Assembly (NCBI RefSeq): GCF_041296385.1
Contig: NW_027184085.1
Location: 54,961,109 to 55,025,108, forward strand
From: Aphelocoma coerulescens
Lineage: Eukaryota; Chordata; Aves; Passeriformes; Corvidae
Length of the DNA stretch: 64,000 nucleotides
Reading direction: 5' to 3'
The position numbers and the translations under genes were made by a program. How positions within the stretch are numbered: the stretch's first letter is position 1; the number at the start of each line of letters is the position of its first letter. Below the pieces are notes generated by a model. The model was not told the DNA's origin, did no database searches, and saw only the letters and a program-made list of their open reading frames with translations. This document shows positions 8,440 through 63,632 of the stretch, piece after piece.

Positions 8440-9268
8440 GACCCCTGAAGGTCAGGATGCCATCCAGAGGGACCTGGACAAGTTTGAGAAGTGGGCCCAT
8501 GGGAATCTCATGAGGTTAAACAAGACCAGGTGCAAGGTGCTGCACCTGGGTCAGGACACTCCCAGTATCAGCACAGGCTGGGGATGAACAGATGGAGAGC
8601 AGCCCTGTGAGAAGGACTTGGGGGTGCTGGTGGGTGAGAGGCTGGACATGACCCAGCCATGAGCACTCCCAGCCCAGAAAGCCAAACGTGTCCTGGGCTG
8701 CATCCAAGGCAGTGTGGGCAGCAGGGGAGGGAGGGGATTCTGCCCCTCTGCTCTGCTCTGGGGAGACCCCACCTGGAACACTGCATCCAGCTCTGGGGTC
8801 CCAGCACAGAAGGACATGGACCTGCTGGTGTGAGTCCAGAGGAGGCCACCAAGATGTTTAGAGGGATGGAGCATCTCTCCTATAAGAAAAGGCTGAGGGA
8901 ATTGGAATTGTTCAGCCTGGAAAAGAGGAGGCTGCAAGGTGGCCTAACTGCAACCTTCTAGAACCTGAAGGGACCCTACAAGAAACATAGAGAGGGACTT
9001 TCGACAAGAACCTGTAGACAGAACAAGGGGGAATGGCTTAAAACTGAAAGAGAGTAGCTTTAGATTAGATATTAGGAAGAAATTCTTTACTGTGAGAGGT
9101 TGCCTAGAAGTTCTGGAAGTCCTGTCCCTGGGAGTGTTCAAGTTCAGGCTGGATGTGGCTCTAAACAACATGGGCTGGAGAAAAGTGCCCCTGGCATGGT
9201 GGTTGGGATGAGATAGTCTTTAAGGTCCCTTCCAACCCAAGCCATTCTACAACTCTATGATTCTATGA
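8440..9268 (+). mobile_element. CR1 LINE, 5'-truncated 3' fragment
   Basis: The segment carries the characteristic CR1 3' portion: a block around 8460-8600 matching the end of the CR1 ORF2 region ('GAGGGACCTGGACAAG'), the 'TTCAGCCTGGAAAAGAGGAGGCT' type block near 8918, and the terminal 'AAGGTCCCTTCCAACCC' followed by the octamer-like tail 'CTATGATTCTATGA' at 9254-9268. Stops and frameshifts make it non-coding. The 5' edge is approximate. CR1 elements are the dominant LINEs of birds and other sauropsids, and this copy is a dead insertion. Confidence 0.9.
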
Positions 9269-23968: not shown

Positions 23969-24708
23969 AGAGAATTGTAGAAACGGTTTGGGTTGGAAGG
24001 GACCTTACTGATGATCTAGCTCCAACACCTCTGCCAAGTGCAAGGCACCTTTCACTTCACCAGATTGCTCAAAGTGCCATCCAACTTGAACTTGAACACT
24101 TCAGGAATGGCACATCCACCCTTCTCGGGGTAACCTGTGTGGGTTTATTCCTTATATCTAATCTAAACCCACCCTCTTTCATTTTAAAGCTATACTTTAA
24201 AGCCATTCTTGTCCTATTACTACATGCCTTGGTAAAAACCCTCTCCCCAGCTCTCTTCCCCCTTTAGTTACTGGAAGGTGCTATAAAGTCTCCCTGGATC
24301 CTTCTCTTTTCCAGGCTGAACACTCCCAATTCTCTCAACCTGTCTTCATGGGAGAGGTGCTTCAGTCTCCCAATTCTCTTCATGGCCTCCTCTGGACTCG
24401 ATCCAACAATTTCATGTTTTTCTTGTGTTGGGGGCCCCAGGGCTGGACAGAACACTCCAGATGGGTGTCACCAGGGCAGAGCAGAGGGGCAGAATCCCTT
24501 CCCTCTCCCTGCTGGCCACGCTGTTTTGGATGCAGCCTAGGACACATTTGGCTTTCTGGTGTCTGAGTGCACATTGACAGATCATGTCCAGCCTCTGATC
24601 CACCAGCAGTTCCAAGTCCATCTCTCAGAGGCTGCTCTCAATCCACCCTCTGTCCAGCCTGTACTTGTGCTTGGGACTGCTCCAACACATGTGCAGGTCA
24701 TGGCCAAT
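23969..24708 (-). mobile_element. CR1 LINE, 3' fragment in reverse orientation
   Basis: On the plus strand the segment opens with the reverse complement of a CR1 tail ('GGTTTGGGTTGGAAGGGACC', about 23986-24005). It then runs through the reverse complement of the 'CTGGAAAAGAGAAGG' block near 24302-24316 and further internal CR1 3' sequence up to about 24700. It is therefore inserted on the minus strand. Multiple stops and indels make it non-coding. The inner edge near 24708 is approximate. Confidence 0.88.
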
Positions 24709-52914: not shown

Positions 52915-52919
52915 AAAGT
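52915..52919. repeat. Target-site duplication, left copy (AAAGT)
   Basis: AAAGT lies immediately outside the left LTR, and the same five bases lie immediately outside the right LTR at 63628-63632. A perfect 5-bp duplication is the footprint of a retroviral integrase and shows that the two LTRs belong to one insertion event. Confidence 0.93.
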
Positions 52920-53682
52920 TGTGAGGAATGAGACAACTCTTTGTAGAAATTAAAACAATTTATTAAAACAGAAAAAAATTGAAAAATTGCAAAAAAAAAA
53001 AAAACTAACAAAATATAAAAATTTGGGATCCAGATGGCTCGAGAGATATGCCCCAGGAGCGCAGGGATTCAGGAACTTTAGGCTTAAGACAGCTCTGAAC
53101 CTCAGGTAGAGAAAAAAAATAAACTTGCAGTTTAGGCTGGTCAAAAAGAAATCTATTTCTAAAAAGCCCCTAGAAAGGGGTAGGCTTCTCCAGCACTGCC
53201 TTAGCAAGCTGGAGAGGAAGGGAAAATGAGAGTGGGCGTGTCTTTTGGATTCCTTTTATAGCTTTTGCTCCGCCCACAGTCCGCCCACAGCCCACCCACA
53301 GTCCACCCCCCTGGTTCAAGGCGGTTGGTGTTTTCCCCTTGACAGACCACCTCTGTCCACCAATGGCTCCTCCTGGTCAGAGGGGTGATATTAGTTGAGA
53401 TAAGGGTCATGTGCTTATGGGGGGCTGGGCTGTTTGTTGCAACTGGGGTTTTTTTAAAATCTGCCTTGAAACCAAGATACAAGTAAAACAAAAAAATACA
53501 TTCCACACATCTTAAAACACTTGTAAAGGTATACAGTAAACACAGGAAGACCATAAAAGCTTGATTATTGTACCTGGACTGATGGATTGATTTTAACATT
53601 CAATTTAAAAATATTAAGCTCAAATTAATTAAGGCACTTAATATGCAAAGACCAAGCACAAATAGGGATTTCATGTATGACA
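52920..53682 (-). repeat. 3' LTR of the provirus
   Basis: This 763-bp copy repeats 62865-63627 at a constant offset of 9945 bp, with no difference that I could find, including identical homopolymer lengths (for example the A14 run). In retroviral orientation it begins TGTCATAC and ends CTCACA. It carries TATAAAAGG (53260-53252) with GC/CACCC boxes upstream, and AATAAA (52964-52959) near its end. It would supply the polyadenylation site for all proviral transcripts. If the TATA box and AATAAA are used, R would be about 285 nt and U5 only about 20 nt, which is inference. Confidence 0.96.
52959..52964 (-). terminator. Poly(A) signal AATAAA in the 3' LTR
   Basis: AATAAA on the minus strand sits about 40 bp before the end of the LTR and is followed by a moderately GU-rich stretch (GAGUUGUCUC). 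It is the likely cleavage and polyadenylation signal for the retroviral RNAs. The identical hexamer in the 5' LTR (62904-62909) must be bypassed. Confidence 0.7.
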
Positions 53683-53726
53683 AGTCCCCCCTTTTTCTCT
53701 TATGCTCACATCTTTGGTCTTTGCAT
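53683..53726 (-). other. env-LTR spacer with the polypurine tract
   Basis: The 44 bp between the env stop and the 3' LTR contain the polypurine tract listed separately and no further gene. Confidence 0.8.
53686..53701 (-). promoter_or_regulatory. Polypurine tract (plus-strand DNA primer)
   Basis: On the minus strand the sequence reads AAGAGAAAAAGGGGGG, an uninterrupted 16-nt purine run ending three bases (ACT) before the LTR. This is the expected position and composition for the RNase H-resistant primer of plus-strand synthesis. Confidence 0.9.
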
Positions 53727-55691
53727 TTAAGTGGAGGTGGATAACTCTTCAGGGATAGATTCAAGCTCTTTAAAACTGTCCCACACTTGCTGGGCAATTT
53801 TTCTCTCCTTTCTAGTTTTCTTATTGTTACTATTATTGATATGCATAATCTTTTGAGCGAATGGTGGACGCTGCTGTTGTCCTTGAAGATCCTGGATCAG
53901 TGGCATGCTTTGGACGACAGTGGTGATTAGACGGATGAAACAAGGGATTAAACAAGGGAGAAAAATAAGTCCTGTAAGGGAAAGTCCAACAATAATTAAA
54001 GCTTTCTTCCACCATTGTCCTTGGAAAATATTTTCCCACCATTCAGAAGTGATCAAGGGCTGCCATTTCTGCACTGGAACATGGGCTAGTTTCCTGATGT
54101 TTTGGGTAATCTTGGTGATGGCTTCGCCGTGATCATCAATATGGATGCAGCAGTCTGAGGTGTTAAACTTGCCGCATACTCCACCTTCTTCAGCTAGTAA
54201 ATAGTCCAATGCCAGCCTATTTTGGTACACGGCTGCTCGAGTTTGCCCTTGCTGTGTGTTAAGTAGTTCAAGAGCAAGAGAGGTCTCATTAGTGATTACC
54301 TCAATTAGTGCTTGCAGTCTGATGATCCGGTTTAGCATGTAGATGGGAGTTCGGTACCCCCAGCTCCCATCCTGTGCCCATGTTGCAGGTCCATAAGTCT
54401 CTAGGATCCTCTCAGGTGGCCACTCTTCTTCTCCCCATCTCTGGGTCCCTCCTATTACATGTCTCTTAGTACGGAAAAGTTCATCATAAAGGGAGATTCC
54501 AAGGTGGGCTCCAGCGTTTTCAGCAAGTAGGAAGAAGTTTGGTTGAATGGCTCCAAGAGTGCAGCTCCCTTTCCAGCGAGGTGGTAAGTTGGAATAAGCT
54601 CGGTTACCACAGATCCAGTAGAGGTCTTGTGGTGCTTCCCAGAAGTGGGGTTGTATACTTGCTGCTGTAATCCAGTACTTGGAAATTTGTGGCAGGACAG
54701 AATATGGATTTCCTTGATCCCAGCACTGCCAGAGTTTTTTAACAGGATTCAAAATGCAATTTTTGTTTTTAACCTTTTCTGCAGACCAGAATACATCTGG
54801 TTCTTGAGGTATCCACCAATGTTTTTGCCCATCAGTTACCAGGTACCTTTTGCATATTGTCTCACCAACTTCTTTTAAAAATTTTCTTCCTTTCCTCCAG
54901 ATGCATTCTTCTCCAATAACAGTATTGCTTAGCAGCCAGGTTTCATTGTCATGTCTGGTTGTGGGGGAGAGATTACTCAGTCGGAGTAAATCGGGGGGTC
55001 CAAGACTGACTCCCCGCCAAGGCCAACTCTCCGATTCTAAAGTTCCTCCGCACACCCAGCAATTTGTTAAATTTAGCTGTTGTCCAATCCTTTCTGCCAG
55101 GTCAATAAACAAGTTTTTCCTTGACATCAAAGGATTGTTTTCTTTTTGTTTTTCCTTTTCTTCTATGACCACCTCTTGGATCAGGTCAGTGTCATAGGTT
55201 TTTCTTTTTAACAAATCTTCTGTCTTGGTTATGTATCTAAAATTGAAACAGAGCCAATCGTCTTGGGAGGGGCACTCTCCCTTCTGCTTATGTATTTGGG
55301 TGCCAATGTTTTTGCCAATCCAGTACTTGTGACCTTTTTCTGAGCAGATACTCAACCTTGTTATGTTGTAACAAGATGGATTAACATAAGTATGTGCTCG
55401 GAAAAAGTGTCGAATTTGAAATGAGCCTCTTTCTGCCTGGTACACAGTCTTGTAACATCTGTTACAGCGGCTGTCGGCTGCTTGTGTAAAGGGAGGCCAG
55501 AGGACCCAGAGACAGATGACACTCAGTAGCAGGATGTTGCTCACTTTCCCCTTTAGGCATACCCGAGAGGAGCTGTCAGCATTTGGGTTGCCTCTGCTGG
55601 TGGGGGTTGTCATCTTTGCTTCTTTCGTCCTTTCTTTAGGCATCTCACCTTCAGATGGTTCTTCAGTGACCTCAGGCTTCTGGAAACTCAT
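53727..55691 (-). CDS. env: Envelope glycoprotein (Env), full-length open frame
   Basis: This is a 654-residue retroviral envelope precursor. The ATG at 55691 is chosen because it is the first AUG after the predicted env splice acceptor and has A at -3. The N-terminus is a long hydrophilic leader (about 1-49) before a hydrophobic signal segment (about 50-67). SU carries the CWVC disulfide-exchange motif at 211-214. A furin-type site RTKR lies at 407-410. TM has an ISD-like segment (about 489-505), then C506 and C514-C515, i.e. CX7CC rather than the more usual CX6CC. The membrane anchor is about 564-593, followed by a tail of about 60 residues. Sequons occur at N109, N207, N249, N468 and N510. 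The region directly after RTKR is hydrophilic, so no ordinary N-terminal fusion peptide is visible. No stop or frameshift interrupts the frame. Function would be receptor binding and membrane fusion, but activity is unproven. Confidence 0.93.
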   Translation of the reverse strand: MSFQKPEVTEEPSEGEMPKERTKEAKMTTPTSRGNPNADSSSRVCLKGKVSNILLLSVICLWVLWPPFTQAADSRCNRCYKTVYQAERGSFQIRHFFRAHTYVNPSCYNITRLSICSEKGHKYWIGKNIGTQIHKQKGECPSQDDWLCFNFRYITKTEDLLKRKTYDTDLIQEVVIEEKEKQKENNPLMSRKNLFIDLAERIGQQLNLTNCWVCGGTLESESWPWRGVSLGPPDLLRLSNLSPTTRHDNETWLLSNTVIGEECIWRKGRKFLKEVGETICKRYLVTDGQKHWWIPQEPDVFWSAEKVKNKNCILNPVKKLWQCWDQGNPYSVLPQISKYWITAASIQPHFWEAPQDLYWICGNRAYSNLPPRWKGSCTLGAIQPNFFLLAENAGAHLGISLYDELFRTKRHVIGGTQRWGEEEWPPERILETYGPATWAQDGSWGYRTPIYMLNRIIRLQALIEVITNETSLALELLNTQQGQTRAAVYQNRLALDYLLAEEGGVCGKFNTSDCCIHIDDHGEAITKITQNIRKLAHVPVQKWQPLITSEWWENIFQGQWWKKALIIVGLSLTGLIFLPCLIPCFIRLITTVVQSMPLIQDLQGQQQRPPFAQKIMHINNSNNKKTRKERKIAQQVWDSFKELESIPEELSTST

Positions 55692-56010
55692 GGTTATTTT
55701 AGGGTTGGCCTTGTCAAAGATTAGAGTTATCGTGCCCGTAATTTTGGAGTCTGATTGGACTGTTATTGGAAGAGAATGCTGGCTTCAAATGGAGCCTTAC
55801 TATACAGTTGATGTGACAATAAGGTTGTGTGAAGGCAGAATCTGTAAAAGGGAATAACAAAGAACAGAATTAACAGCAAAATATTTTCAACTTAGTTTAA
55901 CAACTTGTAGCTAGCACTTATTACTGAGGTATAACTGGGGAAGAACTGGGAGTACAGGATTTTATTAACTTGGAGTGAGGGATGCTGAGTGGAGCTTTCA
56001 AACAGGGTGT
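55692..56010 (-). other. pol-env intergenic region
   Basis: This 319-bp gap lies between the pol stop codon and the env start. It holds the env splice acceptor and the short env 5' leader. Most related retroviruses overlap pol and env, so a gap is notable. No coding frame of its own is recognised. Confidence 0.75.
55841..55872 (-). promoter_or_regulatory. Predicted env splice acceptor
   Basis: On the minus strand a long pyrimidine-rich tract (TTCTTTGTTATTCCCTTTTA) is followed by CAG, with the exon starting at 55841. It lies 150 nt upstream of the env ATG, and no AUG intervenes between them. This is the expected acceptor for the subgenomic env mRNA. Confidence 0.72.
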
Positions 56011-59000
56011 TTAGTTTGATGGTTTGTCTGGAGGTTTCTTCTCTTCAATTGGTGGTGTTACTGGACCCTTCACCCTCTTGACATGCGTCCAGCCCTTTTC
56101 AAATGTCCGGACAGCTGTTTCAGTGGTTAGCTGGACCTGAAATGGACCTTCCCAGGATGGGGTTAATGACTTTTCTTTCCAGGATTTTATTAACACCCAG
56201 TCACCTGGATTGATGTGATGTAAATTAAAATCAAGTGGGGGAGTTTGTGGTAGAAAACCTCTTTCCCTTAGCAACTCTAGATTTTTGGCAATTATCTGTA
56301 CATATTGTTGTACATTGGAGTTTCCACACTCTTTCACATTCAACTCTTGTGGTGTAGCAAGGTAGGGTAATCCATACAACATCTCATATGGTGAACAACC
56401 TAAATCAGATCTTGGCTGTGTCCTAATTCTAAGAAGAGCAAGTGGAAGGCATTTTACCCAGGTCCATTTTGTTTCCAGCATTAATTTTGTGAGGGTGTTC
56501 TTGATTGTCTGGTTCATCCGTTCCACTCTCCCAGAGCTCTGTGGATGCCACGGGGTGTGTAATCTCCAATTTGTTCCTAATTGCTGAGCCAATTGTTGTA
56601 CAATTTGGGAGGTAAAATGAGTACCTCGATCTGAATCTATGCGGTGGACTATCCCATAACGGGGGATAATTTGCTCGAGGATCACCTTACTCACTGTCTG
56701 GGCTGTTGCATTGACAGTTGGAATAGCTTCCACCCAGTGGGTAAGGTGATCAACGATTACCAATAGGTATTTCCACCTCTGGACAGGAGGCATTTCTGTA
56801 AAGTCAATTTGAATGTTTTGGAAAGGCCTGATTGCTAATTCAATTCCTCCGCCAGTGTTCTTTTTCATTACCTTTTTGTTAACCTTTTGACAGATTACAC
56901 AGTCCCGGGTTATTTGGTTGGCTATTTCATAAACACCAGTGCATCCAAAGGTTCTGAGATAGTGATCCGCCAGAGCCTTTGAACCCCAATGATTGCTTTG
57001 GTGGATATTTTGTAGAATTTCTCGGGTTAAATTTTTGTTTAAAATTTGGCGTTTATCTGGTAAATACCAGCGGCCTTGAGAATCCTCATTGGCACCAATT
57101 AAAACTAATTTCTGTTTTTCCTGATCAGTAAAAATGGGCGTGGGTAAAATGTTAGTTTGTGGAATAGTGTCAGATGTGGTGGTGTTAGTTGGAAGTTGGT
57201 TTACTTCCATCACTTTTACCTCTTCTTCCACTGCTGCTTCTTTTGCTGCCAAGTCTGCTAGGTTGTTCCCCCGAGCTTCTTTTGTGGTTCCCGATTGATG
57301 ACCTGGAATATGCACCACTGAGATCACCTGAGGCAGTTGCAGTGCTTTTAGAATTTTTAGGATCAATTCCTTATGTAGGATATCTTTCCCTTTGGTGTTT
57401 AGGAACCCCCTTTCGGACCAGATTTTTCCAAAGGTGTGGACTACGCCATAAGCGTATCTGGAGTTAGTGTAAATGGTCCCGATGCTTCCTGCTAGTCGGT
57501 GGAGTGCTTTTTCTAGGGCATAGAGCTCACAGACCTGAGCTGACCAGGTCGGTGGCAATCTGCCCTTTTCTAGCACACACATTTGGTGTCCATCGACCAC
57601 TGAATAGCCAGAGCATCGCTTTCCATCCACCACTCGAGATGACCCGTCAATGAAGAGGATTTCCCCTTCATTGAGGGGACAGTCCACTAGGTCCTCTCTG
57701 ACTTTTGTTTGGATATCAATTATCTCAATGCAATTGTGTTCAATTTCTTTTTCTGATGGGGTCCCATAAAGAAATTGAGCTGGATTTTGGTGTGTACACA
57801 CAACTAACCTCAGGTGGTCTGAGTGCATGAGAATGGCTTCATATTTGACTATTCTTGGGTCAGTTAACCACTCTGCAGCCCTGTGAGCTAAAATGGTTTT
57901 GATTGAGTGTGGTGTATGCACTGTCAAGTCTCCACCAAAAATGAGTTTTTGACTCTCCGAGACCAGAACAGCTGCTGCGGCGATGGACTGGATGCAGACG
58001 GGCCATCCTCTGGACACTGGATCCAGTAATTTGGAAAGAAAAGCAACTGGCTTCCTGACTCCACCCCACTCCTGGGTCAAGACGCCATAGGCAACTCCCT
58101 TCTCCACATTAACAAATAGATCGAAGGGTTTTTCTAGTGAAGGAAGGCTTAAAACAGGTGCTTTTGTTAATTTCTCTTTCAGATTTTGTAATTTTTGTGT
58201 ATCTGAATTAGTCCAATTAAAAGGTTCTTCTTCTATTAGTTTTTCATATAAAAATTTGGCAGATTGTGAATACTGATCAATCCACAGTCTGCAGTATCCA
58301 AATAGGCCTAATAATTGCCGAATTTCTCGTTTTGAAGTTGGAGGTGGTAGATTTAGGATTCCTTCTACTCTTTCAGCACTGAGTTTTTTTGTGCCATGGC
58401 CAATTAGATGTCCCAAATACTTCACCTCCTGTAGCACAAATTGTAATTTAGGTTTTGACACCCTCAGCCCGTTCCTCCCTAGAAAATTCAGTAACTGAAT
58501 TGTAGCAGTTCTTACCATAGACTCCTGTTCCCCAGAGAGGAGCAGGTCGTCTACGTACTGAGTTACCTGAATCCCTTCGGGTGGAGAAAAGGAACTTAGC
58601 AAATCTTCTAGCGCTTGGCCAAAGAGTGTGGGTGACTCGGTGTAACCCTGAGGCAGGCGAGTCCAGCGCAGCTGCTGCTTCCGTCCAGTGTCCGGATCCT
58701 CCCAGGTAAATGCAAAGATGTCTCTGCAATGAGAATCTAGAGGACATGACCAGAAAGCATCTTTAAGGTCAATAACAGAGAACCAGGCATGTGCTGGGGG
58801 TACCCGACTCAGGAGTGTATAGGGGTCCTGCACCAGTGGGTACCTGATTTGGACTCTCTTATTGACCTCACGCAGATCTTGTACAAGCCGGAATGACTTA
58901 TCTGGTTTCTGGACAGCCAAAATTGGAGTGTTGTAACTGGATTTGCAGGTCTCAAGAATTCCATCTTGTAATAAGTCCATGATAACAGGCTTCAGGCCCT

Positions 59001-59523
59001 TTCTTTTGTCCTTGGAGAGGGGATATTGTGGTACACGTACTGGCTGGCTATTTGGGAGCAACTCAATTGTTAGTGGTGTGATGTCCATTTTTCCCCGGTT
59101 GCCAGGTTTGGCCCACACTACCGGGTTAATGTGTTGCTCATCTACTAAAGATAAAACAAACAATTTAGTGGTCATTTTTCCACCCTGCGGTACCACCCCA
59201 ACCCTCAGAGGTATTTGGAAGTCACGTCCTAAAAGATTGATCCCAGCTTGAGGTAGGTATAGCACATCCCCTGTATGGGTACGTCCTTGTATGGAAAGGG
59301 TTACATTTTTAATTACAGGCACAGCAAAGCTTTCACCATTAGCACCATATATATCTAATGTATCTTGAGAAATAAAACATCCTGGAGGTGTTTTAGTGAC
59401 ACAGGTTCTTTCAGCACCTGTGTCCACTAAAAACTCCACTTGTTGTCTCTGGGGTCCAGCTTCTAATTTTATCAAGGGCTCTTTAAGATGTTTTTGCCCC
59501 AGAGAATAAAGCCCCTGACCCCT
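56011..59523 (-). CDS. pol: Pol polyprotein: protease, reverse transcriptase, RNase H, integrase
   Basis: Pol is open from the codon after the gag UGA to a TAA at 56011-56013, in the same frame as gag. It has no ATG at its head, so Gag-Pol by stop readthrough is expected. Residues here count from the TTG at 59475. Protease: DTGA at 18-21 and LLGRD at 81-85. RT: D236, LPQG at 274-277 and YVDD at 307-310. RNase H: D610, E650 and D741 are present, but the third acidic position is Asn (N671, in YTNSRYA). Integrase: zinc-binding H825, H829, C859 and C862; catalytic D891, D949 and E985 with 35 residues between the last two; C-terminal WEGPF at 1108-1112. Length and domain order match a complete gamma-like pol. 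Apart from N671 the catalytic residues look intact. No dUTPase domain is seen. Confidence 0.94.
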   Translation of the reverse strand, partial: RGQGLYSLGQKHLKEPLIKLEAGPQRQQVEFLVDTGAERTCVTKTPPGCFISQDTLDIYGANGESFAVPVIKNVTLSIQGRTHTGDVLYLPQAGINLLGRDFQIPLRVGVVPQGGKMTTKLFVLSLVDEQHINPVVWAKPGNRGKMDITPLTIELLPNSQPVRVPQYPLSKDKRKGLKPVIMDLLQDGILETCKSSYNTPILAVQKPDKSFRLVQDLREVNKRVQIRYPLVQDPYTLLSRVPPAHAWFSVIDLKDAFWSCPLDSHCRDIFAFTWEDPDTGRKQQLRWTRLPQGYTESPTLFGQALEDLLSSFSPPEGIQVTQYVDDLLLSGEQESMVRTATIQLLNFLGRNGLRVSKPKLQFVLQEVKYLGHLIGHGTKKLSAERVEGILNLPPPTSKREIRQLLGLFGYCRLWIDQYSQSAKFLYEKLIEEEPFNWTNSDTQKLQNLKEKLTKAPVLSLPSLEKPFDLFVNVEKGVAYGVLTQEWGGVRKPVAFLSKLLDPVSRGWPVCIQSIAAAAVLVSESQKLIFGGDLTVHTPHSIKTILAHRAAEWLTDPRIVKYEAILMHSDHLRLVVCTHQNPAQFLYGTPSEKEIEHNCIEIIDIQTKVREDLVDCPLNEGEILFIDGSSRVVDGKRCSGYSVVDGHQMCVLEKGRLPPTWSAQVCELYALEKALHRLAGSIGTIYTNSRYAYGVVHTFGKIWSERGFLNTKGKDILHKELILKILKALQLPQVISVVHIPGHQSGTTKEARGNNLADLAAKEAAVEEEVKVMEVNQLPTNTTTSDTIPQTNILPTPIFTDQEKQKLVLIGANEDSQGRWYLPDKRQILNKNLTREILQNIHQSNHWGSKALADHYLRTFGCTGVYEIANQITRDCVICQKVNKKVMKKNTGGGIELAIRPFQNIQIDFTEMPPVQRWKYLLVIVDHLTHWVEAIPTVNATAQTVSKVILEQIIPRYGIVHRIDSDRGTHFTSQIVQQLAQQLGTNWRLHTPWHPQSSGRVERMNQTIKNTLTKLMLETKWTWVKCLPLALLRIRTQPRSDLGCSPYEMLYGLPYLATPQELNVKECGNSNVQQYVQIIAKNLELLRERGFLPQTPPLDFNLHHINPGDWVLIKSWKEKSLTPSWEGPFQVQLTTETAVRTFEKGWTHVKRVKGPVTPPIEEKKPPDKPSN

Positions 59524-59526
59524 TCA
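59446..59526 (-). promoter_or_regulatory. gag UGA readthrough signal with candidate RNA pseudoknot
   Basis: The gag stop is UGA (59526-59524), followed in frame by pol. Eight bases later (59515) a stem can form: GGGCUUU (59514-59508) with AGAGCCC (59482-59476), 7 bp including one G-U. The loop word UCUCUGGGG (59505-59497) is perfectly complementary over 9 bp to CCCCAGAGA (59454-59446), giving pseudoknot topology. The 8-nt spacer and downstream pseudoknot follow the gammaretroviral readthrough design, although the loop between the stems (14 nt) is longer than usual. A competing pairing, GGGGUC (59522-59517) with GACCCC (59456-59451), also exists. Confidence 0.65.
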
Positions 59527-61242
59527 GTTGTTCAAAATTTGTCCCTCCATTTGAAGGACTCCTTGATCTCTCTGCTTTTTAAAACAGTACCACTGCCCGT
59601 GGCCTGGTTTATTACAGTATGTGCAAATTAACCTCTCAGGTCTTTGAACAATTGGGGTAGATTGTTTATTGCAAACACAAACCTGTGGCTGTTGCTGAGG
59701 GCAGATTTGGGTTTGCTGTTGTGGGATGCCCCTTTGGGAAGTTCTTTGTGTAGGAGGGTTGTGGATTGGAGCATTAGTACTGTTATTCATTATTCGGCTT
59801 TTAGCCTTCATCCTCTCTTCATCCCTCCTAACAAAGACTTTTTGGGCTTCCTCCAGTAATTCATCTAGTTCCCTCTCTGGCCATTTTTCCAATTTTTCCA
59901 ATTTTTTCCTGATGTCAGGCCAGGAGTGAAGTACAAAATGTACCTTTAGCATAGTTTTGCCTCCCTCACTGTCTAAGTCAATGACAGAATAAAGTTGAAT
60001 GTTATTCCTTAACCGAGCCATCCAAGCTGTTGGGGACTCATCCTTTTCCTGTTCCCCACAAAATGCTTTTTTCATATTATTAACTCGAGGAACAGCTTCT
60101 CTAATCCCTTTTATAATTAAATTTCTGTAGTCCTTCATGTTCCTCCTGCCCTCTTCTGAATTTGGGTTCCATTCAGGGTCTGTCAGTGGTAATTTTTGTT
60201 CTCCAATTGGGCCTTGATTAGAATTATTTTCTCTGTCCCAGACTGTCACTCCTGCAGCTCTAATCAATTTTCTTTCCTCAATGGTGAATAAGGAGTGAAG
60301 GATGGATTGTATCTCTCCCCAATTATAAATATTAGGGCCGAGGAATTGATCAAATTGGTCAGCTAGACCAATGGGGTCAGCCATCAGGCTTTTCATTTCT
60401 TTTTTAAATTCCCGTACCTCAGATGAAGCTAGAGGTACAACTACATAACCAATTCCTCCTTGAGCATTTCCCATGGGTACCTCCCTAAGAGGTAAAATTT
60501 TAGACTCATGGGGAGTGCTAAGGCAGGTGGGACAGTCAGGTGTTTTAAATGATTTCTTTCTAGTGCAAGATGCTGGGCCATCCTGGCTAGAAGAAATCCT
60601 TTGTCCGGTTGTCTTTTTGTGAGAGCAGGAAGGAACAGAATTTTCTTTTTCACTTTCATTCTCATTTTCTGAGTCCCTTTCGATTGGGTGGCTTGATGAA
60701 GGAAGGACCCTTTCTTGTTCAATTTGGACCCTCCTTTCTGGAGGAGTTACTGGAGGAAGGTAGTCTAGGGGGTCCCACTTTGGTTTATTTAATTTAGGTT
60801 TTTGTTTTTCTTTCTGTTTGTGTTCTTCTGCAATGGAAAAAATTTGGTTTGAATTTTTATTAAGTCCAATTGAATTAGATTTAGTTTCCTCTTCCAATTC
60901 TAATTTTTTTCTTTGGTCTTCATTTTGTTTTTGCCAATAATTTAACCAAATTTTAGCATAGTCTAATTCATCAGAATGTTTTGGAGCTTTGTAATGTACA
61001 TAAGAATGCAAAGCCTCACAAAGCCATTTTTCAGAAGACCCATACTTGGGCCATTTGAGACCATCTTTGTTAATTTTATGTTTTGGCCACTTAAAAACAC
61101 AGTACCTGATCATTTGACACTGGTCTTTTTCTTTAGTTAAAAGATTTTCTTCCCACTTTAGGAGCATTTGTCCTAACGGGCTTTCTGGGAAAATTTTGTA
61201 TTTCTTCATTAGGTCTTTCTTTTTGCTATTCGCTTGTCCCAT
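59524..61242 (-). CDS. gag: Gag polyprotein, full-length open frame
   Basis: Gag is 572 residues. The open frame extends 27 codons further upstream, but the start at 61242 is preferred: it gives Met-Gly-Gln (an N-myristoylation context), has AAA before and G after the ATG, and skips a lysine run encoded by the A19 tract. A basic matrix head (about 1-110) is followed by a lysine/glutamate- and proline-rich linker (about 110-255). An MLV-type capsid occupies about 256-470, with conserved-looking stretches around 306-325, 354-365 and WPDIRKKLEKLE at 441-452. A charged segment leads to a Pro/Gln-rich region and one CCHC knuckle (C540, C543, H548, C553). No PPxY or PTAP late motif is evident; PPVTPP at 163-168 is the only proline cluster of that kind in the linker. 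It ends in UGA and is followed in frame by pol. Confidence 0.94.
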   Translation of the reverse strand: MGQANSKKKDLMKKYKIFPESPLGQMLLKWEENLLTKEKDQCQMIRYCVFKWPKHKINKDGLKWPKYGSSEKWLCEALHSYVHYKAPKHSDELDYAKIWLNYWQKQNEDQRKKLELEEETKSNSIGLNKNSNQIFSIAEEHKQKEKQKPKLNKPKWDPLDYLPPVTPPERRVQIEQERVLPSSSHPIERDSENENESEKENSVPSCSHKKTTGQRISSSQDGPASCTRKKSFKTPDCPTCLSTPHESKILPLREVPMGNAQGGIGYVVVPLASSEVREFKKEMKSLMADPIGLADQFDQFLGPNIYNWGEIQSILHSLFTIEERKLIRAAGVTVWDRENNSNQGPIGEQKLPLTDPEWNPNSEEGRRNMKDYRNLIIKGIREAVPRVNNMKKAFCGEQEKDESPTAWMARLRNNIQLYSVIDLDSEGGKTMLKVHFVLHSWPDIRKKLEKLEKWPERELDELLEEAQKVFVRRDEERMKAKSRIMNNSTNAPIHNPPTQRTSQRGIPQQQTQICPQQQPQVCVCNKQSTPIVQRPERLICTYCNKPGHGQWYCFKKQRDQGVLQMEGQILNN

Positions 61243-61247
61243 TTTGT

Positions 61248-61268
61248 TACTGGGAAGCAAACAAGTAG
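61248..61268 (-). promoter_or_regulatory. Splice-acceptor-like sequence just upstream of gag
   Basis: The minus strand reads CTTGTTTGCTTCCCAG (61265-61250) and then TAACAAAATGG, placing an AG acceptor only about 8 nt before the gag ATG. The pyrimidine tract is short but the consensus is good. If used, it would remove most of the leader from a gag mRNA. This is a sequence match only. Confidence 0.4.
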
Positions 61269-61287
61269 CTAGTGCAGAAGAAAAATA

Positions 61288-61306
61288 TTTTTTTTTTTTT
61301 TTTTTT
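61288..61306 (-). repeat. A19 homopolymer upstream of gag
   Basis: Nineteen A residues on the minus strand (T on the plus strand) lie about 45 bp upstream of the gag ATG. The run is probably length-variable and would encode only lysines if translated, which argues against the upstream Met as the gag start. Confidence 0.9.
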
Positions 61307-61950
61307 CTAATTAAATAAACCAAAGTATTGTATTATATAAAACATTTAAAATATTGCATAAGGAAATAATGTTACAAAATAACCTAAATTCAATACACTA
61401 TCACAATAAAAAAATGATAATAAAGTTATAAGCATAAAATACAATACAACTAATGTAGAGAAAAGCAAGCAAGGTTAGTAGATATATAAGGGAATGAATG
61501 ATGGCGAATCTGTGGGAAAATTAAATATGGTAGGCTGGTGAGAAACAAATATGTTGCAAGAAAATATTAGTTTTAATTATAAAAAGAATAATTAGTGAAT
61601 ATTTAAATTGTTTAAAGTATAACTGAAATTTAGATAGCTTTATACATATAATACTTAAGAAACAGGAGTTGTCTTTATTAGCAAAGGAGAGATAAATTTA
61701 AAATATTTATAACCAAATTAAAGGAAAAAGATTATAATGAATAACACAAACAGTAATTCAAAATATCAAAGTAGTGTCTTATGATTAAAGCAGATAAAGC
61801 AAATTACAACTACAATCCAATAACCCAAACACTCCAAACTAACAGGAAGTATAAAGGTGCTAGATAGCACTGACCACAAGAGTGCAGCTAAAACAAGTTC
61901 CCACATGCACTTAGAACAGCAAAGGGGTGCAGTTCAAATTAAAAGGACAC

Positions 61951-62334
61951 AAAATGGCGGCCGACCACGTGGCGGCCCGAAATTTCAAAATGGCGGCCGA
62001 CCACGTGGAAACCCGAAATTTCAAAATGGCGGCCGACCACGCGGCGGCGCGAAATTTCAAAATGGCGGCCGACCACGCGGCAGCCCGAAATTTCAAAATG
62101 GCGGCCGACCACGCGGCGGCGCGAAATTTCAAAATGGCGGCCGACCACGCGGCAGCCCGAAATTTCAAAATGGCGGCCGACCACGCGGCGGCGCGAAATT
62201 TCAAAATGGCGGCCGACCACGCGGCAGCCCGAAATTTCAAAATGGCGGCCGACCACGCGGCAGCCCGAAATTTCAAAATGGCCGCCGACCACGCGGCAGC
62301 CCGAAATTTCAAAATGGCCGCCGACCACGCGGCG
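61951..62334 (-). repeat. 36-bp GC-rich tandem repeat in the proviral leader (10.7 units)
   Basis: Ten full 36-bp units start at 61951, 61987, 62023, 62059, 62095, 62131, 62167, 62203, 62239 and 62275, followed by a 24-bp partial unit at 62311. On the plus strand each opens AAAATGGCGGCCGACCACG and closes CGAAATTTC. Units 3-8 alternate between GCGGCGGCGCG and GCGGCAGCCCG, making a 72-bp higher-order repeat present three times. Units 1-2 carry CACGTG, and units 10-11 have GGCCGCC in place of GGCGGCC. AAAATGGCGGC matches the YY1 consensus. The block is CpG-dense inside an AT-rich leader. Because 36 is a multiple of three, several frames stay open through it, so open frames here are weak evidence of coding. 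Confidence 0.95.
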
Positions 62335-62690
62335 AAAAGAAAAAGAGAGGGGTTTAAAATGAGGTTTCTCCTCAGTTCTAGACCCGAGGAGACTGAGACA
62401 CTAATAAAAATGAATTTGGGGCTGCGCACACCCCTAAAACGTGGAAACCTCCCCCCAGAAAGGCTGATCACCACACTCGATCTTCCCCTCTGTGTCTCTA
62501 AAGGGGTGATCCCTCGTGGTGCCCTTAAAAATGAACCCTTTCAAGCACACTCACACACACACTGGGGGCGGCCAACCCCCCCACACACTCTCTCACAAAA
62601 GGAATTCCACTCGGAGGTTCCCCAAAAACTAATAGCCCTTAAAAAGGGTAAGTCCCTAACTAAGTTCCCTTTAAGAAGGGTTCAAGCCTT

Positions 62691-62700
62691 ACCACAAGTC
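62691..62700 (-). promoter_or_regulatory. Candidate splice donor in the leader (distal)
   Basis: The minus strand reads CTTGTG|GTAAGG with the exon end at 62693. GTAAGG is a good 5' splice-site match, located 172 bp into the leader. It competes with the site near 62818 as the donor for env RNA. Confidence 0.4.
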
Positions 62701-62812
62701 TTTCTCCACCGGAGGTGTCCTTTCTCTGCTGCAGTAATCCTTGTGGAGCCCAGAAAATCCAAGGGGAAAAACCAAAAAAATCGCAAAAATTCAAAAATAG
62801 TAAAATTAACCA

Positions 62813-62824
62813 AAATACCTGGAT
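62813..62824 (-). promoter_or_regulatory. Candidate splice donor in the leader (proximal)
   Basis: The minus strand reads ATCCAG|GTATTT with the exon end at 62819, about 22 bp after the primer-binding site. It matches CAG|GT but is weaker downstream. It is a plausible donor for the env mRNA, although not distinguishable from the 62693 site by eye. Confidence 0.4.
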
Positions 62825-62840
62825 TTAGGGCAAAAATAGG

Positions 62841-62857
62841 ATCCCGGAGAGCCCCCA
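62841..62857 (-). promoter_or_regulatory. Primer-binding site, tRNA-Pro-like with a one-base gap
   Basis: The minus strand reads TGGGGGCTCTCCGGGAT, which equals the 18-nt complement of the tRNA-Pro 3' end except for one missing G after CTC. It starts seven bases after the end of the 5' LTR, farther than the usual two to three. tRNA-Pro priming is common among gammaretroviruses, supporting the class I assignment. Confidence 0.85.
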
Positions 62858-62864
62858 AAAGAGT

Positions 62865-63627
62865 TGTGAGGAATGAGACAACTCTTTGTAGAAATTAAAA
62901 CAATTTATTAAAACAGAAAAAAATTGAAAAATTGCAAAAAAAAAAAAAACTAACAAAATATAAAAATTTGGGATCCAGATGGCTCGAGAGATATGCCCCA
63001 GGAGCGCAGGGATTCAGGAACTTTAGGCTTAAGACAGCTCTGAACCTCAGGTAGAGAAAAAAAATAAACTTGCAGTTTAGGCTGGTCAAAAAGAAATCTA
63101 TTTCTAAAAAGCCCCTAGAAAGGGGTAGGCTTCTCCAGCACTGCCTTAGCAAGCTGGAGAGGAAGGGAAAATGAGAGTGGGCGTGTCTTTTGGATTCCTT
63201 TTATAGCTTTTGCTCCGCCCACAGTCCGCCCACAGCCCACCCACAGTCCACCCCCCTGGTTCAAGGCGGTTGGTGTTTTCCCCTTGACAGACCACCTCTG
63301 TCCACCAATGGCTCCTCCTGGTCAGAGGGGTGATATTAGTTGAGATAAGGGTCATGTGCTTATGGGGGGCTGGGCTGTTTGTTGCAACTGGGGTTTTTTT
63401 AAAATCTGCCTTGAAACCAAGATACAAGTAAAACAAAAAAATACATTCCACACATCTTAAAACACTTGTAAAGGTATACAGTAAACACAGGAAGACCATA
63501 AAAGCTTGATTATTGTACCTGGACTGATGGATTGATTTTAACATTCAATTTAAAAATATTAAGCTCAAATTAATTAAGGCACTTAATATGCAAAGACCAA
63601 GCACAAATAGGGATTTCATGTATGACA
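62865..63627 (-). repeat. 5' LTR of the provirus
   Basis: This 763-bp copy appears identical to the 3' LTR and supplies the promoter. In retroviral orientation it starts TGTCATAC (63627 downward) and ends CTCACA (62865). The U3 part contains a CCAAT-type word (near 63308), four spaced GC/CACCC boxes and a TATA box. A U3 frame of 132 codons (63544-63146) with a hydrophobic N-terminal third is open in both LTRs, but has no recognised relative. Confidence 0.96.
63197..63257 (-). promoter_or_regulatory. Core promoter in the 5' LTR: TATA box and GC/CACCC boxes
   Basis: TATAAAAGG lies on the minus strand at 63205-63197. Immediately upstream (63215-63257) are four closely spaced copies related to ACTGTGGGCGG or GTGGGTGG, resembling Sp1/KLF boxes. 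The arrangement is that of a compact RNA polymerase II promoter, with initiation expected about 25-30 bp downstream, near 63170. The same elements in the 3' LTR (53252-53312) could drive transcription into the host flank. Confidence 0.75.
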
Positions 63628-63632
63628 AAAGT
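63628..63632. repeat. Target-site duplication, right copy (AAAGT)
   Basis: These five bases match 52915-52919 and directly abut the outer end of the 5' LTR. The empty site before integration would have read ...GCATTCAAAGTCATTCAG... . Confidence 0.93.

What the first reader, a model, noticed from the sequence alone, without database searches (positions are those of the whole stretch)
52920..63627. A complete, apparently very young retroviral insertion with all three genes open
The two 763-bp LTRs look identical, the target-site duplication is perfect, and gag, pol and env are uninterrupted. LTRs are identical at integration and diverge afterwards, so no visible change in 763 bp means a recent insertion or recent gene conversion. 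The locus may be polymorphic in the population and could represent an active lineage in a bird.
Basis: partly seen in the sequence, partly recalled or inferred. Interest (0 to 1): 0.82.

Follow-up and report, generated by a model that had tools for sequence, protein, structure and literature searches.

The report
Young jay retrovirus with switch-like repeats
A very recently inserted retrovirus in a scrub-jay genome belongs to a family that has been copying itself recently; this copy looks whole but one of its enzymes is probably dead, and the family carries an unusual, length-variable block of repeats resembling a gene-control switch.

Summary
In detail: a minus-strand 10,708-bp provirus with LTRs identical over 763 bases, a 5-bp duplication (AAAGT) and open gag, pol and env. 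The genome is a jay's, most likely Florida scrub-jay. The 40 best LTR matches there (40 of 1368 candidates scored) resolve into 21 full-length copies and 3 solo LTRs; 15 of 21 have identical LTR pairs (8 substitutions in 15,874 sites overall), while 16 copies compared differ by a median 0.9%. So youth is family-wide, not local gene conversion. Two points change the picture. RNase H lacks a catalytic aspartate (Asn), kept in 15 of 15 relatives and 13 of 13 other copies readable: this copy is probably not autonomous. And the leader holds 11 tandem 36-nt units, each with a YY1-type site, forming a CpG-rich block (o/e 1.65 versus 0.08-0.36 elsewhere in the provirus); 16 of 16 copies examined carry 2-11 units. 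Polymorphism among birds was not testable.

The parts
62865..63627 (-). 5' LTR (763 bp, TG...CA); TATA box at 63200-63205, polyadenylation signal at 62904-62909, 11-bp repeat block 63214-63253
52920..53682 (-). 3' LTR, identical to the 5' LTR
   Evidence: 0 of 763 differ
52915..52919 (.). target-site duplication AAAGT, left
63628..63632 (.). target-site duplication AAAGT, right
62841..62857 (-). primer binding site, tRNA-Pro type (recalled), one position short of the form seen in other copies; the same first 28 nt after the LTR occur in 5 of 14 copies, this one included
62692..62693 (-). candidate splice donor, upstream of the array; same 9-mer in 14 of 14 copies, this one included
   Evidence: simple matrix, recalled
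61950..62345 (-). tandem array, 11 units of 36 nt, one YY1-type GCCATTTTG site per unit; CpG o/e 1.65, G+C 0.61
   Evidence: 2-11 units in 16 of 16 copies examined, this one included
59524..61242 (-). gag (572 aa): MGQ start, Gag_p30, one CCHC knuckle, no PPxY/PTAP/YPxL match; ends in TGA
56011..59523 (-). pol (1170 aa) in the gag frame: protease, RT (YVDD), RNase H, integrase (D-D-E, WEGPF)
57214..57726 (-). RNase H domain piece; aspartate of the T-D-S motif replaced by asparagine
55841..55880 (-). candidate splice acceptor tract (pyrimidines, then CAG) before env
   Evidence: read by eye
53727..55691 (-). env (654 aa): CWVC in SU, RTKR cleavage site, CX7CC in TM; long N-terminal stretch before the hydrophobic signal-like segment
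53686..53700 (-). polypurine tract next to the 3' LTR

Best explanation
This is a genuine, very young provirus of a class I (gamma-like) endogenous retrovirus with an ERV3-1-like envelope, in the genome of a scrub-jay. It is one of at least 21 full-length copies of a family that has been inserting within roughly the last few hundred thousand years. Shown: structure, identical LTRs, independent insertions, copy-to-copy variation, the altered RNase H site and the variable array. Inferred: (1) this copy was made by the RT of a relative and carries a private RNase H lesion, gained in that last copying or after insertion, so it could move only with help in trans; (2) the leader array works as a DNA element: a row of YY1-bound sites kept free of CpG decay that boosts transcription from the 5' LTR, growing and shrinking by slippage or recombination during copying, comparable with the YY1-bearing promoter monomers of mouse L1 Tf; (3) it lies between the candidate donor and the env acceptor, so it would be in genomic RNA and absent from env mRNA.
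For: LTR identity and TSD; 21 full-length copies, 17 of 21 without a substitution between their LTRs, 8 substitutions in 15,874 sites; between-copy median 0.92% over 120 comparisons among 16 of them; TSDs 5 bp in 18 of 21 and 4 bp in 3 of 21. RNase H: Asp in 15 of 15 relatives and in 13 of 13 other copies readable (15 sampled), Asn here; the aligned chain of PDB 4hkq also has Asn there, those of 5dmr and 3v1o Asp; a review lists D583 among the catalytic residues of M-MuLV RNase H and D583N among the changes in SuperScript enzymes (PMC8640165, passages; that these are RNase H-reduced, and that 4hkq was inactivated on purpose, is recalled). Array: 11 sites in 11 units versus shuffle mean 0.21, maximum 3 in 2000 shuffles; none in LTR, rest of leader or 52.9 kb of flank, 1 in 7,560 nt of the coding part; CpG o/e 1.56-1.76 in 14 of 14 copies measured against 0.20 in the LTR; donor 9-mer in 14 of 14. 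YY1 activates mouse L1 Tf through monomer sites (PMC11602158, abstract).
Against: No binding, methylation or expression data; YY1 also silences retroviral LTRs through TRIM28 (PMC7472088, passages), so the sign could be the opposite. The array also folds strongly as RNA (z -4.83), so it may act in RNA or be slippage debris. Copies were picked by likeness to this LTR, and the 16 pairs that came up together are biased to identical pairs: the five completed later had 0, 2, 0, 3 and 2 substitutions and, in four of the five, length differences. LTR dates rest on recalled bird rates. Asn at one site is a missense prediction, not an assay; a base error in the assembly is not excluded.
Confidence: 0.8

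Rival explanations
1. The family spreads by reinfection from an infectious pool (circulating in birds or made by other proviruses), so copies differ because the virus evolved between insertions, as in koala retrovirus (recalled).
For: Within-copy LTR divergence 5e-4 (21 copies) versus between-copy median 9e-3 (16 copies). In the 3' env part of 13 copies, shared variants are 3 amino-acid changing to 7 silent (binomial p 0.006 against 0.73 expected), singletons 8 to 3. Solo LTRs few among the 40 rows: 3 against 21 full-length copies.
Against: The pooled Fisher test of shared versus singleton variants is not significant (p 0.19) and RNase H singletons are themselves constrained (4 to 9, p 0.004). 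Gag shows no PPxY, PTAP or YPxL match by regex. IMG/VR scans confirmed no relative. Env-dependent spread among germ cells of one species would look the same.
Confidence: 0.35
2. The family amplifies inside the germ line by cis or trans retrotransposition of a few source copies, with older insertions lost; no infection is needed.
For: Copies with 2-3 LTR substitutions exist beside identical ones; CpG depletion of LTR and genes not far from the host flank's fits a lineage with a methylated past; a copy with a changed RNase H and other copies with env stops (2 of 14 in the 3' part) would need help in trans.
Against: env shared variants are constrained; between-copy divergence is about 18 times the within-copy divergence.
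Confidence: 0.45
3. The LTR identity is due to gene conversion, a segmental duplication or an assembly error, and the insertion is old.
For: Identity alone does not separate these; one search allows hundreds of thousands of years.
Against: Copies have different LTR variants (1 identical pair in 120 comparisons) that mostly agree within a copy, with different TSDs; the left flank is found once in the assembly; TSD perfect.
Confidence: 0.05
4. The array has no transcriptional role: it is an RNA element (packaging, dimerisation, translation) or neutral slippage product.
For: RNA fold z -4.83, 0 of 100 shuffles as stable; position after the candidate donor puts it in genomic RNA only; unit number varies from 2 to 11.
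Against: CpG retention against depleted surroundings and a conserved YY1-type core in 11 of 11 units; an RNA role does not predict CpG retention.
Confidence: 0.35

Closest known systems
Avian ERVs annotated 'endogenous retrovirus group 3 member 1 Env-like' (passerines, gull; also sharks and rays)
   Same: Env about 40-52% identical over much of its length to bird, shark and ray proteins; a near-identical Env in Aphelocoma coerulescens; pol 52-59% identical to many bird pols; env tree groups it with passerine Envs
   Different: 71-72% to its nearest full-length pol, from an unnamed source; whether these relatives have a leader array could not be seen (proteins only)
Corvus relatives (C. moneduloides gag fragment, C. 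hawaiiensis Env)
   Same: 69% (gag, 66% of its length) and 75% (Env, 55% of its length) identity
   Different: Too far apart to be the same insertions carried down in corvids (inference)
Murine leukaemia virus-type gammaretroviruses
   Same: Gag_p30, one CCHC, gag and pol in one frame split by one stop codon, MLV-type integrase end, tRNA-Pro PBS type (PBS type recalled)
   Different: TGA rather than UAG at the gag end (MLV's recalled); CX7CC Env; 1.6-kb leader with YY1-type array; mostly 5-bp TSD
Mouse LINE-1 Tf promoter monomers
   Same: Tandem units with YY1 sites in the monomers (PMC11602158, abstract); some promoters CpG-island bearing, more monomers more activity (PMC2894050, passages)
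   Different: 36-nt units in a retroviral leader, with a TATA-containing LTR upstream; no homology implied
ERV-W / HERV-H long pre-gag leaders
   Same: Long region between PBS and gag, possible intron (PMC6995185, passages)
   Different: The passages seen mention no YY1-type tandem array

Membership tests
Class I ERV (ERV1, gamma-like) | pol groups with class I retroviruses | tested here: met
   best PDB matches are RT chains of the MLV kind (MMLV RT named for 1mml; 4hkq at 544 bits against 164 for the first 'Pr125Pol' chain); pol tree with bird pols and two mammalian gamma-like rows on a separate branch ('gamma' there is my label)
Class I ERV (ERV1, gamma-like) | 1-2 zinc knuckles in gag, GPF/Y motif after integrase, no dUTPase (PMC4299795 table) | tested here: met
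   one CCHC, WEGPF, no dUTPase hit in pol
Class I ERV (ERV1, gamma-like) | TSD usually 4 bp (typical, stated there as not consistent within classes) | tested here: inconclusive
   5 bp here; 18 of 21 copies 5 bp, 3 of 21 4 bp; departs from the usual value, not treated as defining
ERV3-1-like Env group | Env homologous over SU and TM to proteins named ERV3-1 Env-like | tested here: met
   158 proteins at E <= 0.001 (120 listed), many of them so named; alignment over SU and TM; 5 deviations in 147 conserved columns
Replication-competent (autonomous) provirus | all catalytic residues present | tested here: not met
   RNase H aspartate replaced
Recently active ERV family | several copies with near-identical LTR pairs at independent sites | tested here: met
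   17 of 21 without a substitution
Recently active ERV family | insertions polymorphic between individuals | not testable with these tools
   single assembly, flank found once
YY1-driven promoter array | one YY1-type site per tandem unit, CpG-rich | tested here: met
YY1-driven promoter array | YY1 binds and transcription depends on it | not testable with these tools
   no expression or binding data

The most novel reading that the evidence does not exclude
An infectious retrovirus has been colonising the germ line of scrub-jays within the last tens to hundreds of thousands of years and may still be doing so, and its leader carries an expandable YY1/CpG-island array that serves as an internal, methylation-resistant enhancer whose copy number tunes each provirus's activity: a retroviral counterpart of the mouse L1 Tf monomer promoter.
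Probability: 0.2. Interest if true: 0.85.

Novelty: new variant of a known kind. Interest (0 to 1): 0.55.

Why it matters
Florida scrub-jays are a threatened population with decades of individual monitoring and genetic sampling (PMC11631490, start of abstract in the listing), so a family this young could be followed bird by bird: new insertions, loss, load and expression would be directly measurable. The variable YY1-type array would let array length be related to expression and silencing of otherwise near-identical proviruses. The case is also a caution: identical LTRs and open frames did not mean a working provirus.

Tried and rejected
Gene capture in the leader: the 187-aa sense and 323-codon antisense frames owe their array part to a 36-nt unit (a multiple of 3); Pfam gave nothing above a curated cut-off. 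The antisense frame's non-array part (176 codons) was reached by 6 of 2000 shuffles, and a stop-free antisense stretch of at least 224 codons is present in 12 of 14 copies, this one included, but the copies are close kin; left open. PBS as a lesion: not taken as decisive, since the same form occurs in 5 of 14 copies, this one included. Read-through stem after the gag stop: z -1.41, weak. Relatives in IMG/VR: none confirmed for pol, the array unit, or the pol and env alignments (records of this genome may be left out there). Other ERV pieces in the window: none found by tblastn with 339 proteins, the only outside hit being a window ORF matching itself. Missing late-domain motif in gag: regex only, not pursued. 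My first age estimate from the 16 listed pairs (1 substitution in 12,124 sites) was too young; five further copies raised it to 8 in 15,874. Rows dropped before counts: L049 and L055 (RNase H piece not found) and L032 (env part 888 nt uncovered).
Full report
WHAT IS THERE. The two LTRs are identical over 763 bases and flanked by AAAGT on both sides; the element is 10,708 bp and its genes lie on the minus strand. gag (572 aa) ends in TGA and pol (1170 aa) continues in the same frame; env (654 aa) starts 319 nt after the pol stop. Pfam recognises Gag_p30, aspartyl protease, RT, RNase H, integrase with an MLV-type C-terminal domain and TLV_coat. YVDD, the integrase D-D-E, a WEGPF motif, one CCHC knuckle, CWVC in SU, RTKR and CX7CC in TM are present.

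HOST. The best Env match is a protein of Aphelocoma coerulescens, differing at 2 of 654 aligned residues. The window's own genome has 1,330,612,911 bases; the Florida scrub-jay paper gives 281 Mb of repeats as 21.13% of its assembly, that is about 1.33 Gb (PMC11631490, passages). The window lies on a 72.3-Mb contig, in a 64-kb neighbourhood where tblastn found no other ERV piece, unlike the 21-Mb contig C34, which carries many of the 150 listed RT matches.

WHAT KIND. The best solved-structure matches to pol are RT chains of the MLV kind. In the pol tree (26 rows) it pairs with a sequence of unnamed source at 72% identity and sits among bird pols; skate and ray pols are the next branch (81/90), the shark is unresolved. 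In the env tree (36 rows) it groups with passerine Envs (9 rows, 99/98), then with further bird rows and a marmot (16 rows), and the shark/ray clade is the next branch (91/90). The 5-bp TSD departs from the usual 4 bp of class I, a value described as not consistent within classes (PMC4299795, passages).

HOW YOUNG. For this copy alone, no change in 763 bp gives a 95% upper bound of 427 to 1636 kyr for rates of 4.6e-9 to 1.2e-9 per site and year (rates recalled). The genome search scored 40 of 1368 LTR candidates. All 40 rows are accounted for: 32 form 16 pairs, 5 had partners that I then fetched, 3 are solo LTRs with 5-bp duplications. Of 21 full-length copies 15 have LTR pairs identical without gaps, 17 have no substitution, and the rest have 1, 2, 2 and 3; in all 8 substitutions in 15,874 sites. 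TSDs are 5 bp in 18 and 4 bp in 3. Among 16 copies LTRs differ from copy to copy by a median 0.92% (0 to 1.86%, 120 comparisons, one of them identical). At 2.3e-9 the mean age would be about 110 kyr (arithmetic from these counts). The sample is the part of the family closest to this LTR, so it may lean young. Pairs that agree within a copy but differ between copies speak against duplication or collapse; the left flank was found once in the assembly, which also means no empty allele is held and polymorphism stays untested.

IS IT INTACT. Compared with 15 relatives, pol deviates at 15 of 378 conserved columns (4.0%; the relatives' own figures run from 1.3% to 15.1%; two of the 15 are an end effect). 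One matters: the RNase H motif read as T-D-S in 15 of 15 relatives has Asn for Asp. In the alignment to solved structures the chains of 5dmr and 3v1o have Asp and the chain of 4hkq has Asn at that place. A review lists D524, E562, D583 and D653 as the catalytic residues and D583N among the changes in SuperScript enzymes (PMC8640165, passages); that this site is D583 is inferred from the aligned motif. Of 15 other copies sampled, the piece was readable in 13, all with Asp; in 2 it was not found. Among the copies read the change is private to this one. RNase H is needed for reverse transcription (established knowledge), so this copy is probably not autonomous, although it arose by reverse transcription and could be copied in trans. 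Other copies also have breaks: of 14 examined in the 3' env part, 2 have a stop, 1 an insertion of one base and 1 is largely uncovered. I name no copy as working.

THE LEADER ARRAY. Between the 5' LTR and gag lie 1622 nt. They contain 11 units of exactly 36 nt. All 11 carry a GCCATTTTG site; the pattern [CG]GCCATNTT occurs 11 times there, against 0.21 on average and 3 at most in 2000 shuffles; it is absent from the LTR, the rest of the leader and 52.9 kb of flank and occurs once in the coding part. The match to YY1 rests on the mouse L1 YY1 site GGTCGCCATCTTGGT (PMC2894050, passages) and on recall. CpG observed/expected is 1.65 in the array but 0.20 in the LTR, 0.36 and 0.08 in the rest of the leader, 0.15, 0.32 and 0.28 in gag, pol and env and 0.14 in the left flank. 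Sixteen of 16 copies examined, this one included, carry the array with 11, 10, 11, 9, 9, 4, 4, 8, 4, 2, 9, 6, 8, 11, 11 and 3 sites, always 36 nt apart; CpG o/e was 1.56-1.76 in the 14 measured. So the array is a family hallmark whose length changes between very young copies. A donor-like 9-mer lies upstream of it in 14 of 14 copies, and an acceptor-like tract precedes env. If used, the array is in genomic RNA and not in env mRNA.

HOW IT MAY WORK. I favour a DNA role: a row of YY1 sites in an unmethylated CpG-rich block that helps transcription from the LTR, as YY1-bearing monomers do in mouse L1 Tf, where YY1 motifs account for synergy between monomers (PMC11602158, abstract). Against: YY1 recruits TRIM28 to retroviral LTRs and silences them (PMC7472088, passages), and the array folds well as RNA (z -4.83). 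I put the enhancer reading at about 0.4, other or no function sharing the rest.

HOW IT SPREADS. In the 3' env part (13 copies) shared variants are 3 changing to 7 silent (p 0.006 against neutrality), singletons 8 to 3; in the RNase H piece (14 copies) 1 to 4 (p 0.03) and 4 to 9 (p 0.004); the pooled contrast of shared and singleton is not significant (Fisher p 0.19). This hints that env was under selection while the family spread, as reinfection would require, but does not prove it. Segregating young LTR elements are known in Corvus (PMC7341801, passages), and full-length ERVs are enriched on the avian W (PMC8310711, passages).

NOVELTY. A young ERV family in a bird is a known kind. A search for Aphelocoma with 'endogenous retrovirus' gave 3 papers, of which I read passages of one; searches for YY1 with tandem repeat, ERV and leader, and for tandem repeats between PBS and gag, gave 1 and 4 papers, and one for YY1 with ERV, provirus, silencing and binding sites gave 56, of which 12 were listed. 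I saw listings, and passages of PMC6995185 and PMC7472088; none of that describes such an array. Within those limits the array is a new variant.

Noticed in passing
G000, table (for example C1:73615960, C3:9261630, C39:63424420): 37 of the 150 scored RT matches (9934 candidates) share one score (142.7 bits, E 8.9e-39), 35 of them in open frames of 1168 aa, on many contigs: another, apparently abundant and very homogeneous ERV family in this jay.
   Followed up: no
window 61927-62898 (+): A 323-codon frame antisense to the virus spans array, leader and PBS; a stop-free antisense stretch of at least 224 codons is present in 12 of 14 copies, this one included.
   Followed up: partly
window 62835-62864 (-): The first 28 nt after the 5' LTR come in 5 forms among 14 copies, suggesting varying primer sites within one young family.
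   Followed up: partly
env homologues P0032, P0033, P0035, P0037, P0039, P0040: Shark and ray Envs (clusters of 9 to 41 sequences) are 39-44% identical to the jay Env, close to the 42-46% of many bird ones; suggests wide host jumps in this Env group.
   Followed up: partly
window 8591-8931 and 24300-24643: A 79% identical inverted repeat pair of about 340 bp in the host flank, possibly an old interspersed repeat.
   Followed up: no
window 62022-62201: Units in this part of the array alternate between two forms with a 72-nt period, as if pairs of units had been duplicated.
   Followed up: no
gag, window 59524-61242: No PPxY, PTAP or YPxL match, although some relatives (e.g. shark P0283) have PPPY near the same place.
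   Followed up: partly
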